A stretch of 64,000 nucleotides of DNA from Methanobrevibacter sp. YE315. GTDB taxonomy: Archaea > Methanobacteriota > Methanobacteria > Methanobacteriales > Methanobacteriaceae. Positions within the stretch are counted from its first letter, which is position 1. The number at the start of each line of letters is the position of its first letter. Below the pieces are notes generated by a model. The model had not been told where the DNA came from, ran no database searches, and saw only the letters and a list, made by a program, of their open reading frames with translations. A program made the translations under genes and the position numbers. The stretch covers positions 1,399,501 to 1,463,500 of the forward strand of contig NZ_CP010834.1 of assembly GCF_001548675.1 (NCBI RefSeq). Direction: 5' to 3'. Positions 5,596-39,830 of this stretch are shown here, piece by piece.

Positions 5596-6225
5596 TTAAG
5601 GATTATCTTTAAAATAATCGCAAATGTCAGTGCAAGGACAAATTTCACATTGCGGAGAAATCGGTTTACAGATATTTTGCCCAAACTGAACCATCAAATC
5701 ATTCAATTTAATCCATAAATCCCTTGGAGCAATCTTGGACAATTCAAATTCAGTATCCTCCGGATCTTTGGTATCGACCAAACCCAATCTATTTGAAATT
5801 CTGTGCACATGAGTATCAACCGGAATGGCCGGAAGCTCGAAAGCAAAAACCATAACGCAATTCGCTGTTTTTCTGCCAACCCCTGGAAGCTTGACCAATT
5901 CCTCAACAGTATCAGGAACTTCCCCACCGTATTCATCGATTAAAATCTGTGAAACTTCAACAATTCTAGCTGCTTTGACATTATAAAAACCAGCAGGACG
6001 AATTAACTCTTTTATATCATCGATTGGAGCATCGACAACTTCATAGATGTCCTTATATTTGGAAAATAAATTATTAGTGGCCTGATCTGTATTTTCATCA
6101 CGAGTTCTTTGAGACAGAATTGTCCTAATTAAAACTTTATAAGGGTCATGGTCCAGAAATGTCCTTATTTCAAAAGTATTTTCCAGTTCTTCAATCAATC
6201 TAATTACGCGCTCTTCCTTATTCAC
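5596..6225 (-). CDS. nth: Endonuclease III, base-excision DNA glycosylase/AP lyase
   Basis: A 209-residue HhH-GPD glycosylase that removes oxidised pyrimidines. It has the helix-hairpin-helix [13 protein letters not shown] with the catalytic lysine, the downstream [14 protein letters not shown] with the catalytic aspartate, and a C-terminal C-x6-C-x2-C-x5-C [4Fe-4S] motif ([17 protein letters not shown]). Length is standard for the family. Its start overlaps the aroA stop by 4 bp, so the two genes are co-transcribed. Confidence 0.95.
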
Positions 6226-7553: not shown

Positions 7554-7847
7554 AAAAGATATTAAACTTATCGTTTCTCTCCAAACTTTTCTATAGTAAA
7601 GTTTGTTTGGGATAATTAATTAAATTTTTGGAAAGTTGATGAAAGTTTTTTTGGATTGTGCTGAGCTTTGAATAATTCTTTAAAAAAAATCAAAAGGCCC
7701 GCAAAAACTAATTTTGGCAGGCACTCTTTACAAAAAAAGATAAAAGATTGAAATTTGAGCAATCACACCACACTGTATACCCTCATGCTGGGGTGCAATC
7801 CTCAATCAATATTTGTTTTGGAAAAATTCTTTACAATTTCTCCAAAG
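7554..7847. other. Intergenic region between the surface-protein gene and aroA
   Basis: No credible coding frame. It holds the hairpin with T-run at 7681-7722 and a weakly structured stretch at 7755-7805 (outer TTGAG/CTCAA arms and inner GCACC/GGTGT arms on the minus strand). The remainder is AT-rich and presumably contains the aroA promoter. Confidence 0.5.
7681..7722 (-). terminator. Hairpin followed by T-run downstream of the 1001-aa surface protein gene
   Basis: Arms at 7697-7707 and 7712-7722 pair over 11 positions with a 4-nt loop and one mismatch; one further C-A apposition on the plus strand becomes G-U on the minus strand. On the minus strand the stem is followed by CCTTTTGATTTTTTTTA. 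That fits termination of minus-strand transcription about 150 nt beyond the stop at 7871. Confidence 0.5.
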
Positions 7848-7873
7848 TAGGAAAGTGAATTGTCACTTTCCTA
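7848..7873 (-). terminator. Perfect 11-bp hairpin spanning the surface-gene stop codon
   Basis: TAGGAAAGTGA (7848-7858) and TCACTTTCCTA (7863-7873) are perfect inverted copies around a 4-nt loop. The stop codon TAG (7871-7873) is inside the stem. There is no T-run behind it, so it may be an mRNA-stabilising 3' hairpin rather than a terminator; the T-run hairpin follows about 130 nt later. Confidence 0.5.
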
Positions 7874-10800
7874 ATTGGTGAAGTAAAATACTATTCCGAC
7901 AATAGCACCGGATAATCCTGCACCTAAAACTTCTCCAGTTACATAAGGGTCCAATCCGCTTGTACTGATTTCCACCCATGCATTTTCAGGGCCACCATTT
8001 TCTGCTATCCATTGTGCTTCTGCAGCCCATTGTGCACCTACAAATCCTCCGGCAATTCCACCTAATGCTCCTGCTCCTGCAGATCCAAGTACTAAAGTTA
8101 ATATGGTTTTTGTTCTGTCATAATTGACATCAAAATGTTCGGAAATAATCCATCCTGCACATGCACTACCTAAAAGAGCACCAACTGCACAACCTGCTAT
8201 ACCGCCAGTTATAGGATTAGCAGTTAATACACCAACTAAAGTACCTGTGACAAAACTTGCCACAACACATGTCACTGTAAGTAATGTACCTGCAGCTAAA
8301 GACATACTCTGAGTAATGTGTACAAATGCACATTGTGAATCGGAAGTGATTAATTTACCATTATAAATTACTTTACCACCGTCACCGACACAGATGTGAT
8401 TACCTTCACCATATGCCTCATTATTTGCGAAAAGACAATTCTGTACAGTCAATAATCCTTGGTTAAATATTGCTCCTCCGTTTTTGGCATAGTTGTTTGT
8501 AAAAGAACAATTGATACATGTGATTACTCCTGTGTTAAGTATTGCTGCTCCCCAATCCCTCTCGAAGAAATAATCCATTTTGTTCTTGTTGAAGTTTACA
8601 TGGTCAAGAATACATTGTCCTCCCATATTTTCAATAACTGTATTGAAACCTTCAAAAGTTATATTTTGCGCAGCAAATACATTTTTTTCAGACATTATTA
8701 TAAATTTTTCATCATCGCTAGAATCAAATGGACCTCTGATTTTTGATCCTGCACCCTCGATATTGAGCACATCAAAGCTTGATAAAGTCAAGTTCCATGC
8801 GTTAGGACAATTTATTGTCAGGGATTTTGTAAATATCATATCCAATGCCAAAGTAAAAGAATCTTTTTTCGCCATTGTTTTGGTAAGTGCCGCATCCTCC
8901 TTTAAAACATCATAGATTGGAATCAATGTTTTTCCTTTATAAAAGTTTTTCAATAAATTTAAGTAATCAGATCCGTTTGAAACATATGCTTTTTTGGTTA
9001 TTGTAAATTTGCTTTCATAATCATTATCTTTCAATTTATTGAAAATGGCATTGTAAGAGTAGTTGGAGATGTTGTTGAAATAGTAATTCTGTAAATAACT
9101 TATATCATATTCGGCATAATCCCTGATTATGGTAAATATAAAATCTCCGGTATCATTGTAATAGGCGGAATAATATAAAATTTTGTCATTATACTGTATT
9201 AATCCGCCGTCAATAATGGAATGATAAATCAATTCGCTGAGTTCAATGCACTCGCCGCCAACGTATATATAATTGACCGGTGAAATATCTTCCATATCAA
9301 TATCGCAGTTTACACTTCCCTCGTCAAAAAGATTCAATTTTAGATTATAGAATGCAATGTTTTCAAAAGTAAGATCTTTACGCTTATGGTCAACATATAT
9401 TGCTTCATCATTCCATTTTGAATAACAGTTTATAAATAAAGAGTTGGAAACTTTGTTGTTTTCACCGCTGATAAAGATTGCACCTGCAGCAACTTTCGCA
9501 GTGTTGTTTATGAAAGCGCAGTTGTCAATAATTCCGTCATTTCCTTTCCAGGTTATTGCTCCACCGCATGTTACTTGGTTTCCAATGAATGTACAGTTTG
9601 CAAGAGTGCCGTTATTTCCAATCCAGTAGACAAAACTTGCACCATAGTTGTCCAAATCATTAAAATCAAAAGTCAGATTGAATACCTTAACATTGTTTCC
9701 CTTAACCCAAATCAAAGGAAATCCTGCCGGTACGCTTCCATAAATTTTATGTCCGTTACCATTGATTGTAACATTGTTTGGCATGATTTGATAATAACAG
9801 CAATTATAGTCGAAATAATAGTCCCTAGTAAGATTGTAGACATCGCCTTCTTTTAATGTTGTAATGATATTTCGCAATTCATTGTATGATTCCGGCGGAA
9901 CTATAGGATAAACCACTTTGTTGTCGCTTGTTATTCTGCATGGTCCTTCAACATGAAAATCATTCATATATCCCCTATAGTCTTCAAAAGAACAATTGTA
10001 TAATGCAAATTCCATTACTTCTCCTTTTTCATCGAAGTTTTTAAAGAAAATTCCATCCAAATAAAATGAAAATGAATCTTTAAAGATACTGTTGCGGATT
10101 GTGTTGTTGTATCCGCTGATGAAGATTGAACCTCCACGTGTTGCAGCGTTAAGATTGAAATAGCAGTTATCAATCAGGCCGTTGTTTGCAATCCAGTATA
10201 ATGCTCCACCGTCCTCACCATTGTTGTCGTCAAATGTGCAATTTGATAGGACACCATTGTCCCCATGCCATTCTATAGGGCTTACCACCCTTGTATAGTC
10301 CGCACCATAGTGATTCCAGTAGGAACCTTGGTATTCAAGATTGCATGCTCTAACCTTAACGATGTTCAAATTCATTATTGTCACGTTATTTCCTGTTACA
10401 TTAAATATTGCAAAGTATCCTCTGTTTTTATTTCCATCTATGGTATGTCCATTACCGTTGATTACAACATTGTCTGCATTGATGTTTATTATACGATTTT
10501 TTGACAAGTCTTTGTCGCAATCTTCAATAATGTAGTCCTTTTTGATATCATAAACATCACCAGGTTTTAAGTTTTCAATGTCATGGCACAAATCATTGTA
10601 AGTGGCGGGAATAATTTCCGGGCTGAATTCCTCTTCCACAACATTTCCAGTCATATTTACATCATTTTCTAAGTCAGTTTGACTGATTTCCAGTACGACA
10701 TTTCCAGATGCATCTGCACTGGAATATCCCTCTTCAACATCCAGATTCATTTCAAAATCCCCTGCATCTGCAAGATTGCAAGTCTGGTTCGGATCGCTTG

Positions 10801-29077: not shown

Positions 29078-29830
29078 TTATTCTTCCATATTCAATTGGT
29101 CAACAATAGATTCTTGAAGAGCAATGAATTCAGGTGATTCCCTTTTTCTTGGCCTTTCAATATCTACTTCAACAATTTTTGCAATTCTGCCCGGATTTTT
29201 ATCTAAGATAACAATCTTATCAGCCAAATAGACTGCTTCATCAACATCGTGAGTTACAAAAACAATTGTATTTTCAAATCTTTTCCAAACCCCAATGAGC
29301 TGTTCTTGAAGACTATGTCTATTTTGCATATCCACCGCAGAAAACGGCTCATCCATAAGCAATATTGGTGAATGATTAAGTAAGGATCTAATAATTGCAA
29401 CCCTTTGCTTCATACCACCGGAAAGTTCATGAGGATAGCTATCTTTAAAGTCAATTAATCCGACACTTGTCAAGTATCTCTCAGCGGCAGCAATATTTTC
29501 AGCTTTTGAACCTTTATTTGTCATTTCCAAACCGAATGTTACATTCTGAAGTACAGTCAGCCAAGGGAATAATGAATACTGTTGGAAAATAACCGCCCTG
29601 TCACCAGACGGTTTTTTGACGACTTCACCATTGGCTACAATTTCACCGGAAGTAGGCTGTTCAAGACCTGCAATCAATCTTAAGAGAGTTGTTTTACCGC
29701 AACCGGATGGTCCTAAAAGGCATATCAATTCACCATCATTAATAGTCAAATTAATATTTTCTAAAACTGATAATTGATTTGTTTTTTTGCTTTTAAAAGT
29801 TTTATAAATATTTTTAACTTCAATTGACAT
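29078..29830 (-). CDS. ABC transporter ATP-binding protein, nitrate/sulfonate/taurine type
   Basis: A 250-residue ABC ATPase with Walker A GPSGCGKTTLLRLIAGL, Q-loop FQQYSLFPWL, signature LSGGMKQRVAI, Walker B ILLMDEPFSAVD and the H-loop VTHDVDEAVYLAD. Best fit is the SsuB/TauB/NrtD branch that energises uptake of small sulfonates, nitrate or similar compounds. ATG 29830 has AGGTG nine bases earlier; an upstream GTG adds three residues. It overlaps nothing and follows its permease by 9 bp. No substrate-binding protein gene is adjacent, so the substrate is open. Confidence 0.9.
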   Translation of the reverse strand: MSIEVKNIYKTFKSKKTNQLSVLENINLTINDGELICLLGPSGCGKTTLLRLIAGLEQPTSGEIVANGEVVKKPSGDRAVIFQQYSLFPWLTVLQNVTFGLEMTNKGSKAENIAAAERYLTSVGLIDFKDSYPHELSGGMKQRVAIIRSLLNHSPILLMDEPFSAVDMQNRHSLQEQLIGVWKRFENTIVFVTHDVDEAVYLADKIVILDKNPGRIAKIVEVDIERPRKRESPEFIALQESIVDQLNMEE

Positions 29831-29839
29831 GTAAAACAC

Positions 29840-30589
29840 CTACCAAAATATCCTATCTTGAGCCTTGCTGAATACAAAGTCAAATACAAGTCCAATCAAA
29901 CCAATCACTATCATACCAACAACTGTTGTACCAGTGTCAAAAAGGTTTGTTGCAGTTAAAATCATATAACCTAAACCGCTGCTGGACCCAATCATTTCCG
30001 CTGAGATGGTACACATCAAAGCAATACCGATACCAACTTTTAAACCGGAAACAATATATGGAACTGCAGAAGGCACTACTACGCGTTTTAAAACATTCCA
30101 GTCATTTGCTCCAAGTGTTTGAGCGGACTCAACCAATACCTTATCTGTTCTTTTAACACCATCAATTGTATAGACTAGAATAGGGAACACACAACCCATG
30201 AAAATAATAAATACAGCAGGGAATGTGCCTATACCGAACCACAAAATTGAAAATGGAATCCATGCAACCGGAGGAATCGGTCTTAAAACACTAATTACAA
30301 AAGTACATAAATCTTCTAAAGTCTTATACCAACCAAGCAATATTCCTGCTGGAATAGCTACAACAGATGCTAAAATTAAACCTGCAAACACTTTGTATAA
30401 TGTATCAATGGTGTTTGTTAAGAGTCTGCCGTTTTGTATCACTACCCAAGCGGAATTTACCACATCAACAGGGCTTGGCAATATATATGAAGAAAATAAC
30501 TCCAATCCATCAGTAATAACATACCAGAACAATATCAGGACAATAGGTAAAATCAATGGAATGAATTTATTCTTATAATTTTCAAACAT
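29840..30589 (-). CDS. ABC transporter permease, SsuC/TauC type
   Basis: A 249-residue inner-membrane permease with about six helices (first near 10-27) and the cytoplasmic EAA loop around SAQTLGANDWNVLKRVVVPSAVPYIVSGLKVGIG, which contacts the ATPase. It is the first gene of a two-gene operon with the ATPase. The missing binding protein may be elsewhere in the genome. Confidence 0.9.
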   Translation of the reverse strand: MFENYKNKFIPLILPIVLILFWYVITDGLELFSSYILPSPVDVVNSAWVVIQNGRLLTNTIDTLYKVFAGLILASVVAIPAGILLGWYKTLEDLCTFVISVLRPIPPVAWIPFSILWFGIGTFPAVFIIFMGCVFPILVYTIDGVKRTDKVLVESAQTLGANDWNVLKRVVVPSAVPYIVSGLKVGIGIALMCTISAEMIGSSSGLGYMILTATNLFDTGTTVVGMIVIGLIGLVFDFVFSKAQDRIFW

Positions 30590-30675: not shown

Positions 30676-32823
30676 TTAAGAAGCATCAGCTACTTCAATA
30701 GCCTCTACTTCTATACTTCTATTATAATCCTCGTCACCTAGAACAGACTTAGTACTTAAAGCACCAAATAGCATTGTAGATAAATTATGTATCATTGAAG
30801 ATGTTGACGGTGGAATAACACCTAAAACACCCAAAACAAGAAGACTACCATTCACTGCAACGATATTATGGTAATTGGTATTAATCTTATCTAACATTCC
30901 AACACTTAATTTTCTAAGAGTTACAAGGTCATGCAAATCATCAGACAATAATGAAATGTCTGCAACTTCACGAGCAATGTCAGATGAGTTTTTCATGGAA
31001 ACGGACACATCTGCTGCCGCAAGAGCAGGAGAATCATTAATTCCATCCCCAACCATGATTACAGTTTTGCCTTCTTCTTTGAGTTCTTCAACTATTTTAG
31101 ATTTATCTTCAGGAAGCACTTGTGATCTGTATTCGGTTATGCCCAATGCTTTTGCTCCTGCACGGGCGCCGCTTTCACTGTCTCCTGTAAGCATTATGAT
31201 ATTTTCGATGCCTAACGATTTAAGCTCCTCAATAACATATTTTGCTTCTTCACGTACAGGATCATCAATGCAGATAATTCCTTCAAGCTTTCCATCAAGA
31301 GCCAAATAGACAACAGAATGTTCTTCAGCCTTTTTGGCTATCTTTTTCTCTTGAGTTTTGGTTACTTTAACGTTCTCATCATCGAATAGGAAATGTTTTG
31401 AACCAATTACAGCACGTTTGCCTTCATATTCAGTTACAATACCATGAGCCACAATATATTCAACTTCACTGTGGTCTTCCTCGTGTTTAAGACCTTCTTC
31501 TTCAGCTTGTTTTACAATAGCTGTGGCAATACTGTGTGCAAAGTGCTCTTCAATGCATGCCGCCATCCTTAAGATTTCATCACGTTTGTATCTTCTAGAC
31601 ATCGGAATTACGTCAACAACTTTTGGAGTTGCATTTGTTAATGTTCCTGTTTTATCAAATACCATAGTGTCGGCATTTGCATAGTTTTCAAGGAATTTGC
31701 CTCCTTTAACCATCATTCTATTATCAGATGCTTCACGCATTGCTGAAATAATAGATAACGGAGTCGTTAGCTTAATTGCACATGAAAAATCAACCATCAG
31801 GACAGATAATGCTTTTGTTGGATTTCCAGTAATCAAGTAAGTTAAAGCCGTTGCAATAAAGCTATATGGAACAATCGAATCGGCGAGTTTTTCTGCTTTA
31901 CTTTGAGTTTCAGCCTTTAACTCTTCGGAATTTTCTATCAGATCAATGATTTTATTCAATCTTGTTTCCTTATTCATAGAATAAACTTCAATGATTAAAT
32001 TACCTTCTTCAATGACGGTTCCCGCATGGACTGTCTTGCCAGGCATTTTATGAACGGCCAATGGCTCTCCAGTCATTGAAGCTTCATTAACCATTCCTTC
32101 TCCTTCAATTACTTTTCCATCAACAGGTATTACATCACCCATATGAATTTTAACTTTACTTCCCTTATCAATATCAACAAGAGGACACTGTTTTTCCTCA
32201 CCATCATCTCCTACTACCCATACAGTGTCAATGTTTAAAGCTAAACTATCTTTTAAAGTGCTTTTGGCTTTTTGTAATGTGTAGTCCTCTAATGCATCGG
32301 AGATTGACAATAAGAACATCATAGAACTGGCAGGTTTATAATGTTTATGCAATAATGCTCCTGTAACCGCCGCCCCGTCAAGCAAAGCAACGTCAATATT
32401 GAAACTGGTTAAACTATCCAGACCATGCCAGATGTATTCTGCAGCATGATAAATAGTCAAAGCATTTCTTACGGGTATTGGTAGGAATAATTTATAAATT
32501 CCTCTGCGAAAAATCATTTTTGTTAATTTTAAATAAAAATTGCTTGTTATTTCATTTGAAGTTTGAATTTGTGTTGGTTCTGCTTCAAATAAATCGTCCA
32601 TAGTAATTTTATCTAAAATATCGAATATCTTTTGTTTATTCTCAATACCCTCATCATAGTATATCAAAATACTTCCATTCCTATGGGAGGTATGTACCTC
32701 ATGTATAAAGCTTTGATTTAAAAGTAATGAAGCCAGCCCGTAACCTTCCTTTTTAGTGAAGGCCCATTGGCCTGAACGAATCCTTAAACGAGGCCCGTTA
32801 TCATACATTACTTGATATTTCAT
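30676..32823 (-). CDS. P1B-type heavy-metal transporting ATPase with SCA in place of CPC
   Basis: A 715-residue cation pump. It has SMTGEP (actuator), DKTGTLTNATP with the phosphorylated aspartate near residue 391, and GDGINDSPAL. The transmembrane metal site, usually Cys-Pro-Cys, reads DFSCAIKLTTPLS, and the canonical HP dipeptide of the nucleotide domain reads HS (FAHSIATAIV). No N-terminal CxxC metal-binding domain is present; about 110 N-terminal residues look like a degenerate ferredoxin-like domain. Fewer than eight strong membrane helices are visible. The metal cannot be read from sequence; SCA-type pumps and the DtxR-like operators upstream would fit Mn, Fe or Zn. An 88-residue partner gene precedes it by 21 bp. 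Confidence 0.88.
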   Translation of the reverse strand: MKYQVMYDNGPRLRIRSGQWAFTKKEGYGLASLLLNQSFIHEVHTSHRNGSILIYYDEGIENKQKIFDILDKITMDDLFEAEPTQIQTSNEITSNFYLKLTKMIFRRGIYKLFLPIPVRNALTIYHAAEYIWHGLDSLTSFNIDVALLDGAAVTGALLHKHYKPASSMMFLLSISDALEDYTLQKAKSTLKDSLALNIDTVWVVGDDGEEKQCPLVDIDKGSKVKIHMGDVIPVDGKVIEGEGMVNEASMTGEPLAVHKMPGKTVHAGTVIEEGNLIIEVYSMNKETRLNKIIDLIENSEELKAETQSKAEKLADSIVPYSFIATALTYLITGNPTKALSVLMVDFSCAIKLTTPLSIISAMREASDNRMMVKGGKFLENYANADTMVFDKTGTLTNATPKVVDVIPMSRRYKRDEILRMAACIEEHFAHSIATAIVKQAEEEGLKHEEDHSEVEYIVAHGIVTEYEGKRAVIGSKHFLFDDENVKVTKTQEKKIAKKAEEHSVVYLALDGKLEGIICIDDPVREEAKYVIEELKSLGIENIIMLTGDSESGARAGAKALGITEYRSQVLPEDKSKIVEELKEEGKTVIMVGDGINDSPALAAADVSVSMKNSSDIAREVADISLLSDDLHDLVTLRKLSVGMLDKINTNYHNIVAVNGSLLVLGVLGVIPPSTSSMIHNLSTMLFGALSTKSVLGDEDYNRSIEVEAIEVADAS

Positions 32824-32844
32824 TTTATAACCCTGAAACTGGAT

Positions 32845-33111
32845 TTATTCTTCAGATTCTACATAAATTTCTTTTTTACTTTCTGCATTAGCATCAACGA
32901 CAATATCCTCTGCATTTTGTTTCATGTCTTCAAAACATTCTTCTGCATCTTTTTTAATGGACATAACTTCTGCCATACCTTTAGTTGCCGCATCTTTTAC
33001 AGTTTTTGATTCTAAAACTTTTTTACCTACTACTGCAGTTGCTATTCCTGCTGCAAAAAGTAAAACATGTTTGTGTTCTACACATTTATCGAAAAATTCA
33101 TCATGTCTCAT
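32845..33111 (-). CDS. Small membrane-anchored partner of the metal ATPase (PacL/DUF1490/DUF6110-like)
   Basis: An 88-residue protein with an N-terminal hydrophobic helix (HVLLFAAGIATAVVGKKVL, about residues 14-32) and a charged Glu/Lys-rich helix with one cysteine (EECFEDMKQNAEDIV). The shape and the SKTVKDAATKG stretch resemble small proteins encoded beside P1B ATPases in Firmicutes and mycobacteria (PacL type), which act as metal chaperones or scaffolds for the pump. The relation is judged by eye. GAGGAG precedes the ATG; two TTTAGG-type palindromes lie upstream, so it opens the operon. Confidence 0.7.
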   Translation of the reverse strand: MRHDEFFDKCVEHKHVLLFAAGIATAVVGKKVLESKTVKDAATKGMAEVMSIKKDAEECFEDMKQNAEDIVVDANAESKKEIYVESEE

Positions 33112-33149
33112 TTTTAATACTCCTCGAATTTATTAATAAATTAAAATAG

Positions 33150-33165
33150 TTTAGGCAAACCTAAA
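33150..33165. promoter_or_regulatory. Perfect TTTAGG-N4-CCTAAA palindrome before the metal-ATPase operon
   Basis: TTTAGG-CAAA-CCTAAA, 39 bp upstream of the 88-residue gene. It is close to DtxR/IdeR-family boxes, which respond to Fe or Mn. Confidence 0.65.
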
Positions 33166-33211
33166 AATATTTTAATCCCACTTAATATTATATAAAAGGT
33201 ATTATATAAAT

Positions 33212-33227
33212 TTTAGGAATGACTAAA
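33212..33227. promoter_or_regulatory. Second TTTAGG-type palindrome in the metal-ATPase/CPBP intergenic region
   Basis: TTTAGG-AATG-ACTAAA, one mismatch from the dyad, 62 bp from the first copy and 61 bp before the divergent CPBP protease gene. It could regulate either direction. Confidence 0.5.
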
Positions 33228-33287: not shown

Positions 33288-34202
33288 TTGAATTCAAACA
33301 AAAAATTCTTTTCAAAAATCGGATTTAATTACCTGATCTATGCAATATCAGCAATGATTATAGCAATAATAATAATCAATGTCATTAATGGCTTGAACTT
33401 GATTCCCCTTGATGATATTAATGTGCTTTCAATAATAAGCGCTATCTGCAATTATCTGCTTCCATTGCCGATTTTTTTATACTTAATGAAAAAATTAGAT
33501 TCTGAAAAGATTGAAAAAAGCAAAATAGATTTTAAAACATTACTGAAATACCTATGTATCACATTTACCTTAATGTGGATTGGAAACATCATTGGGCTGC
33601 TTCTAACAGCAGGGATTGGCGTTCTAATTCAAAAAAGCATATCCAATCCTATACAGAACCTGATTGAAACAACAGACATCATATTAAATCTTTTATTAAT
33701 AAGCATCATCGGCCCGATTTTTGAAGAGTTCATATTCAGGAAATTATTGATAGACAGAACCATAAAATACGGCGTTACAACATCAATACTGCTTTCTGCA
33801 GTACTTTTCGGATTGTTCCATGGAAATCTTAATCAATTCTTCTATGCCGCATTGATTGGAAGCTTTTTTGCATACGTTTATATAAAAACCGGGAAAATAA
33901 CCTACCCCATAATTCTACATATTATTGTCAACATAATGGGGTCCGTTGTAAGCTTATTCCTAGTGAACAGCGCAAATGCATTAACAACAAATATCAATCC
34001 GACCGATTTAACTATTATATTGCTTTATTTAATTATAATGGCAATAACATTCCTAATCGGTTTGATTGCACTTATAAGATATCTTGAAACAAATCATAAA
34101 AATATAAAAACAGAAATTCCACTAAAAGACATATTCCTAAATGCTGGAATGATATGTTTCATAGCATTCTTTGTTATTCAAATGATAATTCAATTGTTTT
34201 AA
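33288..34202 (+). CDS. CPBP-family intramembrane metalloprotease
   Basis: A 304-residue polytopic membrane protein (about eight helices). It has the glutamate motif EEFIFRKLLIDR near residue 145, the first histidine motif FGLFHGNLNQF, and a third motif around ILHIIVNIMGS. This is the CPBP (CAAX protease and bacteriocin-processing) family. In archaea and bacteria these may process membrane-bound peptides or confer bacteriocin immunity; the substrate here is unknown. TTG 33288 follows GGTGA and is the likely start. Confidence 0.88.
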   Translation: MNSNKKFFSKIGFNYLIYAISAMIIAIIIINVINGLNLIPLDDINVLSIISAICNYLLPLPIFLYLMKKLDSEKIEKSKIDFKTLLKYLCITFTLMWIGNIIGLLLTAGIGVLIQKSISNPIQNLIETTDIILNLLLISIIGPIFEEFIFRKLLIDRTIKYGVTTSILLSAVLFGLFHGNLNQFFYAALIGSFFAYVYIKTGKITYPIILHIIVNIMGSVVSLFLVNSANALTTNINPTDLTIILLYLIIMAITFLIGLIALIRYLETNHKNIKTEIPLKDIFLNAGMICFIAFFVIQMIIQLF

Positions 34203-39361: not shown

Positions 39362-39830
39362 TTTGATCATTGATTAACAGTTGTGTTAGATAATTCTGTT
39401 TTCCAATCATTTTACAGAGGTCTAGTTGTTGTTCTGACCAGTACATGTCTTCCTCTTCGTCTTTGAGATATACTTTCATTAAATCATAGGTTGTTGTATC
39501 CAATATTCCGGATTCCATTACATCATTTAAATAGGCAATTCCTTCAACGGATACGTTGTAGTCATGTTCAATGAATTCTACAATGTCTGTGAATACTGGT
39601 GCTTCAGGTGCTGCTTCTTGCTTGAGTTCGCCTCCTAAATCAAGGATGCGGTCCATGAACTGTTCGACGAAATCCAGCTCTTCTGTTGCATGTGCTGTAT
39701 ATTTGTCTCCAAGAGACTGGAAGCCTAGGCCTGCAAATATTTTTGATTGGATTCTGTGTCCAAATGAGTTTGCAGCAAGACCAGTTACTAAGAATTGTAA
39801 AAATTCAATTGTTTTTTCTTTATCTGACAT
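39351..39830 (-). CDS. Bacterioferritin-like diiron protein
   Basis: A 159-residue four-helix bundle. HATEELDFVEQFMDRILDLGGEL and YLKDEEEDMYWSEQQLDLCKMIGKQNYL closely follow bacterioferritin helices B and D, including EE-type iron ligands. The first helix is shortened and some ligands are changed (E-x2-H to E-x3-F near FVEQF), so ferroxidase activity is uncertain. It probably stores or detoxifies iron. A perfect palindrome lies 24 bp upstream, and a MarR regulator gene precedes it on the same strand. Confidence 0.8.
   Translation of the reverse strand: MSDKEKTIEFLQFLVTGLAANSFGHRIQSKIFAGLGFQSLGDKYTAHATEELDFVEQFMDRILDLGGELKQEAAPEAPVFTDIVEFIEHDYNVSVEGIAYLNDVMESGILDTTTYDLMKVYLKDEEEDMYWSEQQLDLCKMIGKQNYLTQLLINDQNGN

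What the first reader, a model, noticed from the sequence alone, without database searches (positions are those of the whole stretch)
30676..33227. SCA-motif P1B pump with a PacL-like partner in an archaeon
The ATPase lacks CPC (it reads SCA) and is preceded by an 88-residue one-helix protein resembling the small partners of CtpC-type pumps that build metal-efflux platforms in mycobacteria. Operators upstream look DtxR-like.
Basis: partly seen in the sequence, partly recalled or inferred. Interest (0 to 1): 0.6.

Follow-up and report, generated by a model that had tools for sequence, protein, structure and literature searches.

The report
Iron-regulated metal pump with small partner
A gut methane-making archaeon carries a metal pump and a tiny membrane partner of a known pair; their iron-type switches and, in sister species, their place beside the iron-import genes suggest that they handle iron, perhaps storing it in compartments, rather than expelling zinc as the mycobacterial look-alikes do.

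Summary
Confirmed: a 715-aa P1B-type ATPase (30676-32823, minus) with SCA in place of CPC, an 88-aa one-helix protein upstream (32845-33111), and two DtxR-type palindromes (33150-33165, 33212-33227). The small protein is DUF6110 (29.8 bits, cut-off 26) and only sub-threshold DUF1490/PacL (16.6, cut-off 28.4). The pump has the HN motif of P1B-6 ATPases. The DUF6110/P1B-6 pairing, archaea included, is already in print (PMC9374683): a new member of a known kind. The efflux-platform reading is weaker than an iron one. The same operator precedes feoB-feoA and a DtxR-family gene in this genome. In 64 of 89 family pairs it precedes DUF6110 (0.12 expected). In 10 family genomes the pair follows feoB-feoA in one apparent operon, and 20 of 64 bacterial relatives have FeoB or DtxR genes nearby. 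This matches the iron-repressed two-gene fezAB system of C. difficile, which makes iron-storing ferrosomes. I favour a Fez-like iron-sequestration module (0.5); plain iron efflux remains possible. C. difficile FezA was not available for comparison. In 11 genomes DUF6110 genes also follow a CPC-type pump, a setting not mentioned in the passages I read.

The parts
30676..32823 (-). P1B-6-type heavy-metal ATPase (FezB-like), 715 aa
   Evidence: TIGR01525 494 bits, cut-off 346; SCA and HN invariant in 26 relatives; fold matches CopA, ATP7B, ZntA
31777..31785 (-). SCA motif of TM4 (residues 347-349)
   Evidence: sequence; invariant in alignment A4
30784..30789 (-). HN motif of TM6 (residues 679-680), named in PMC9374683 as a P1B6 feature
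   Evidence: sequence; invariant in alignment A4; passage
32845..33111 (-). DUF6110 one-helix protein, 88 aa (PacL-like, candidate FezA counterpart)
   Evidence: PF19605 29.8 bits, cut-off 26; two-helix model
33150..33165 (.). operator 1, TTTAGGCAAACCTAAA, perfect palindromic DtxR-type site
   Evidence: conserved in relatives
33212..33227 (.). operator 2, one mismatch, next to the TATA-like box
33203..33210 (-). TATA-like box TTTATATA of the DUF6110 promoter (a second copy at 33189-33196)
   Evidence: pattern only; no start site mapped
29078..30589 (-). ABC transporter permease and ATP-binding genes downstream on the same strand; possibly co-transcribed, role unknown
   Evidence: same order in many relatives

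Best explanation
A Fez-like ferrous-iron sequestration module in an archaeon. When iron is scarce, a DtxR/IdeR-type repressor leaves two operators at the core promoter, and the DUF6110 and P1B-6 genes are expressed along with the FeoAB iron importer. The DUF6110 protein, a one-helix membrane protein with a small-residue helix face and a charged cytoplasmic helix, gathers and stabilises the pump in membrane patches, as PacL does. The pump then moves Fe(II) out of the cytosol into a membrane-bounded store (ferrosome), so that iron arriving after starvation is buffered. Shown here: the gene pair, the family assignments, the operators and their shared use with feoAB and a DtxR gene, and the feoAB-DUF6110-P1B6 gene order in sister species. 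Inferred: Fe(II) as substrate, DtxR binding and direction of control, the scaffold role of DUF6110, and a store rather than the outside as destination.
For: The operator precedes feoB-feoA (4 sites with at most one mismatch) and a DtxR-family gene with a FeoA domain in the same genome. It precedes DUF6110 in 64 of 89 family pairs, 0.12 expected. In 10 genomes the pair follows feoB-feoA directly; 9 of 10 have two operators before feoB, the tenth is cut by the contig end. In 64 bacterial loci FeoB lies in 11, DtxR-family genes in 18, either in 20. C. difficile fezAB, a P1B pump plus a small protein, is induced by low iron and by loss of Fur (PMC6311696) and needed for ferrosomes (PMC12574912). 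A pump encoded with an importer makes little sense for plain efflux (inference).
Against: No C. difficile or other characterised FezA sequence could be compared. A Fur-box scan of 60 bacterial upstream regions was negative. The genome has ferritin-superfamily genes, so another store exists. DUF4405, the FezC-related family, is in only 34 of 151 genomes. Operators are missing in 25 of 89 pairs, mostly divergent ones. FezAB was down in vivo in one mouse study (PMC11651100). No granules have been looked for.
Confidence: 0.5

Rival explanations
1. Iron efflux at the cell membrane: the pump expels Fe(II), DUF6110 is a PacL-like chaperone that clusters pumps, and placement in the iron regulon prevents overload when derepressed import meets fresh iron.
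For: The iron evidence is the same as for the best explanation. PacL proteins do cluster efflux pumps (PMC13043812). A Fur-repressed iron-efflux pump is known in Listeria (FrvA; recalled).
Against: Co-expression with the importer in one apparent operon in 10 genomes would be futile cycling; the closest characterised layout, fezAB, builds stores.
Confidence: 0.3
2. PacL/CtpC-type zinc (or cadmium) efflux platform.
For: Weak DUF1490 similarity; published relation of the families; DUF6110 also follows CPC-type pumps in 11 family genomes.
Against: No CPC, no CxxC in the N-terminal domain (Cys only at 213, 348, 423, 518), no His-rich tail on the small protein; the operators are shared with feoAB.
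Confidence: 0.08
3. A manganese or cobalt/nickel pump under a DtxR/MntR-type regulator.
For: DtxR-type operators alone do not separate Fe from Mn; a perfect site also lies 439 nt before a CbiM (Co/Ni uptake) gene.
Against: The clearest co-regulated genes are feoB and feoA, and the repressor gene with an operator carries a FeoA domain.
Confidence: 0.08

Closest known systems
DUF6110 plus P1B-6 ATPase pairs (Boudehen et al. 2022, PMC9374683; 'PacL-like' in PMC13043812)
   Same: Same two families in the same order, archaea included
   Different: Those papers infer efflux platforms; here the operators and feoAB gene order argue for iron
C. difficile ferrosome system fezAB (CD630_05910-05920)
   Same: Two-gene layout of small membrane protein and P1B-type pump; iron-repressed control
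   Different: Fur there, DtxR-type operator here; sequence of FezA not compared; no organelle shown here
Mycobacterial PacL1-CtpC (DUF1490, CPC pump)
   Same: One-helix partner encoded before a P1B ATPase; Lys-to-Gly spacing of 8 in the helix as in PacL2 K9-G17
   Different: DUF1490 below cut-off, no metal-binding tail, second Gly shifted, SCA not CPC
Multi-gene P1B-6 operons of Azospirillum and Arcobacter plasmids (YtxH, HMA2, hypothetical genes)
   Same: SCA and HN pump with small proteins directly upstream
   Different: No DUF6110 match in the seven upstream proteins scanned; pumps outside the DUF6110-associated group in the tree

Membership tests
P1B-6 ATPase | HN motif in TM6 (PMC9374683) | tested here: met
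   H679-N680 invariant in 26 sequences
P1B-6 ATPase | SCA in place of CPC in TM4 (recalled) | tested here: met
   S347-C348-A349 invariant in 26 sequences
P1B-6 ATPase | P-type catalytic motifs (TGE, DKTGT, GDGIND) | tested here: met
   invariant columns 251-253, 390-394, 592-597
DUF6110 (PF19605) | profile score over curated cut-off | tested here: met
   29.8 bits, cut-off 26; 36 of 36 relatives match at E up to 0.1
PacL (DUF1490, PF07371) | profile score over curated cut-off | tested here: not met
   16.6 bits, cut-off 28.4
PacL (DUF1490, PF07371) | C-terminal metal-binding motif | tested here: not met
   tail reads KKEIYVESEE, no His
PacL (DUF1490, PF07371) | Lys and GXXG in the TM helix | tested here: inconclusive
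   K14 and G22 keep the K9-G17 spacing; the next small residues are A26 and G29, not G at +3 (motif)
PacL (DUF1490, PF07371) | encoded with a P1B ATPase | tested here: met
   99 of 122 family DUF6110 genes before a P1B-6 pump, 20 after a CPC pump
Ferrosome (Fez) system | P1B-6 ATPase with adjacent small membrane protein | tested here: met
   the definition is partly recalled (primary papers not held)
Ferrosome (Fez) system | sequence homology to characterised FezA and FezB | not tested
   no named Fez sequence could be reached
Ferrosome (Fez) system | repressed by iron | tested here: inconclusive
   iron-type operators shared with feoAB; no expression data
Ferrosome (Fez) system | membrane-bounded iron granules | not testable with these tools
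   needs microscopy with elemental mapping

The most novel reading that the evidence does not exclude
Gut methanogens of the Methanobrevibacter family make archaeal ferrosomes: FeoAB imports iron, and a DUF6110-clustered P1B-6 pump made from the same iron-repressed regulon loads it into membrane stores. PacL (effluxosome scaffold), DUF6110 and FezA would then be one scaffold family that organises P1B pumps in membranes, and a second set of DUF6110 genes (one to four in a row) serves a CPC-type pump in the same archaea.
Probability: 0.35. Interest if true: 0.75.

Novelty: new member of a known kind. Interest (0 to 1): 0.48.

Why it matters
It moves a pair that was filed with zinc-efflux platforms towards iron. 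It gives an uncharacterised DUF6110/P1B-6 couple a likely substrate, a likely regulator and a direct experiment in gut archaea. It also proposes a link between two literatures, PacL effluxosomes and Fez ferrosomes, that I did not find joined in the papers I could search. If right, iron-storage organelles extend to gut methanogens.

Tried and rejected
Zinc/CtpC-type efflux as the main reading: rejected because CPC, CxxC and the metal-binding tail are absent and the regulon is of iron type. FezC link through DUF4405: a DUF4405 gene (L081:2307-2711, 34.9 bits) has an operator with one mismatch upstream, but the family occurs in only 34 of 151 genomes, so it is a lead only. Fur boxes before DUF6110 in bacterial loci: no enrichment, 5 of 60 with 3.3 expected. 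Absence of ferritin as an argument for another store: rejected, ferritin-superfamily genes are present. Sigma-70-type promoter and terminator scan: no excess over shuffles, and unsuited to archaea. Search of viral contigs with the pump: no relative. N-terminal 150 residues against plasmids: no match. DUF1490 in six genomes that have the bacterial pair: none over cut-off.

I looked at nine pump places without an adjacent Pfam hit. G062, G066 and G022 do have a DUF6110 gene by my own profile. G020, G029 and G095 have at most 213 nt of upstream sequence. G078's second copy has an assembly gap there. G150 and G153 show no DUF6110 within 900 and 608 nt, so they are real or possible exceptions. In one search, 99 of 122 DUF6110 genes lie before a P1B-6 pump (5 of these pump frames are fragments without a readable motif), 20 lie after a CPC pump, and 3 have no pump in reach.

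Full report
WHAT IS THERE. The window holds, on the minus strand, an 88-codon gene (32845-33111) and, 21 nt further on, a 715-codon gene (30676-32823). The large protein is a heavy-metal P-type ATPase (TIGR01525, 494 bits, cut-off 346). Its TM4 motif reads SCA instead of CPC, with HN in the last membrane helix; both are invariant in 26 aligned relatives. An AlphaFold model (pLDDT 77) shows the expected membrane helices and an N-terminal domain of beta-beta-alpha-beta-beta-alpha order. That domain has no Cys, since the protein's four Cys are 213, 348, 423 and 518, and the HMA_2 profile matches it only weakly (13.5 bits, cut-off 30). The nearest solved folds are CopA, ATP7B and ZntA. The small protein is DUF6110 (29.8 bits, cut-off 26) and sub-threshold DUF1490 (16.6, cut-off 28.4). 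Its model is two helices of low confidence.

IS IT KNOWN. Boudehen et al. 2022 (PMC9374683, passages) state that DUF6110 proteins are related to DUF1490/PacL, lack the metal-binding motif, occur also in archaea, and are typically encoded with P1B6 ATPases, which carry a conserved HN motif in TM6. The 2026 effluxosome paper (PMC13043812, passages) calls them PacL-like. So 'SCA pump with a PacL-like partner in an archaeon' is an instance of a published association. Only these two held papers contain the word DUF6110. A search for papers with two of PacL, FezA and ferrosome gave 18, of which I saw five titles; none of the five joins PacL with the Fez proteins, and PMC13043812 is not among the papers with the word ferrosome. 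The two primary ferrosome papers (Grant 2022; Pi 2023) are not held. I recall from their abstracts that FezB is a P1B-6 ATPase found also in archaea, and that C. difficile FezA and FezB are repressed by iron and Fur.

OPERATORS. The palindrome TTTAGGNNNNCCTAAA is perfect at 33150-33165 and has one mismatch at 33212-33227. On the minus strand operator 2 abuts a TATA-like box (33203-33210), and operator 1 lies between that box and the gene. This layout fits repression; no start site was mapped. The genome has 14 perfect sites against about 0.2-0.26 expected. Four sites with at most one mismatch precede feoB-feoA, one precedes a DtxR-family gene with a FeoA domain, and one precedes a DUF4405 gene; a perfect site lies 439 nt before a CbiM gene. 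Other sites lie near genes with no evident iron link, such as an MFS transporter, an ABC exporter and a methyltransferase-like gene. In the phylum set 101 of 151 genomes have DUF6110, in 7 of 20 genera, all hits being in the window's family. I fetched loci for all 101 and found 122 DUF6110 genes. Of these, 99 lie directly before a P1B-6 pump; 10 of the 99 follow feoB-feoA; of the other 89, 64 have the operator within -300..+40 (51 perfect), with 0.12 expected from first-order Markov shuffles. Presence falls with divergence of the small protein: 42 of 46 among the closest, 17 of 24 in the middle, 5 of 19 among the most divergent.

IRON LINK BY GENE ORDER. In 10 family genomes (G001, G013, G016, G023, G028, G101, G107, G112, G116, G119) the order is feoB, feoA, a spacer, DUF6110, P1B-6 pump. 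In L065 the spacer holds a small reading frame of zinc-ribbon look (7721-8020, by eye). Nine of ten have two operators before feoB; the tenth is cut by the contig end. Of these, 64 are bacterial, mostly Clostridia. A DUF6110-like gene was found in 61 of the 64; the other three (L116, L119, L170) have little or no sequence before the pump. FeoB lies within the fetched locus in 11, a DtxR-family gene in 18, one or both in 20 of the 64. A Fur-box scan of 60 upstream regions gave no excess. The pump tree (quick method, long branches flagged) puts the 20 sampled family pumps in one supported clade (99) next to Clostridial pumps (support 83), compatible with one transfer from gut Clostridia.

WHAT IT MOST LIKELY DOES. 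C. difficile CD630_05910 (listed as ATPase) and CD630_05920 (hypothetical) rise by 2.0-2.4 log2 in low iron and by 1.9-2.8 in the fur mutant at RNA level, more at protein level, with a Fur box noted at 05920 (PMC6311696, table passage). These are the fezAB genes (PMC11651100, passage, which reports them lower in vivo). FezA and FezB are needed for ferrosomes and repressed by Fur (PMC12574912, passage). FezB is described as a putative ferrous iron transporter (PMC10979944, passage). Ferrosomes accumulate when D. [quoted passage not shown] The archaeal module has the same layout and an iron-type operator, so I favour iron sequestration into a store. Plain iron efflux is the main rival, and the data here cannot tell the destination. 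The PacL analogy remains useful for the small partner: the Lys-to-Gly spacing of 8 is shared with PacL2, while the second Gly is shifted.

A SECOND SETTING. In 11 of the 101 genomes 20 DUF6110 genes (one to four in tandem) follow a CPC-type pump, which in the two copies I aligned has a His-rich N-terminus. Nine of the 11 also have the P1B-6 pair. The spacer between that pump and the first DUF6110 gene is conserved in the 10 loci aligned and carries several degenerate DtxR-like half-palindromes. This resembles the mycobacterial case of several PacL proteins for several pumps and deserves its own study.

VERDICT. Observation confirmed; interpretation partly supported; a new member of a known kind, with iron storage or efflux a better hypothesis than zinc efflux.

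Noticed in passing
L048, L050, L052, L056, L058, L060, L172, L180, L197, L212, L253: DUF6110 genes, one to four in tandem, directly after a CPC-type P1B pump in 11 family genomes; 9 of these also have the P1B-6 pair. The spacer before the first DUF6110 gene is highly conserved and holds degenerate DtxR-like half-palindromes.
   Followed up: partly
L081:2246-2711 (own genome 122245-122710): A DUF4405 gene (family related to the ferrosome cytochrome FezC, PMC10979944) with an operator of one mismatch upstream; DUF4405 occurs in 34 of 151 genomes.
   Followed up: partly
29078-30589: A permease and ATP-binding ABC pair without a substrate-binding gene follows the pump on the same strand here and in many relatives.
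   Followed up: no
1662-1677: A one-mismatch operator lies just upstream of a gene that looks like an O-acetylhomoserine sulfhydrylase (274-1572, by eye), so sulfur metabolism may share the regulon.
   Followed up: no
L279 (G150) and L283 (G153): Two genus-g27 P1B-6 pumps without an adjacent DUF6110 gene; a small gene that looks GerW-like by eye follows both.
   Followed up: no
39405-39743: A ferritin-superfamily gene inside the window (52 bits), with no operator of at most one mismatch near it.
   Followed up: no
33288-34202: A divergent CPBP/Rce1-type protease gene (76 bits) sits beside the operators; similar divergent genes recur beside the pair in many relatives.
   Followed up: no
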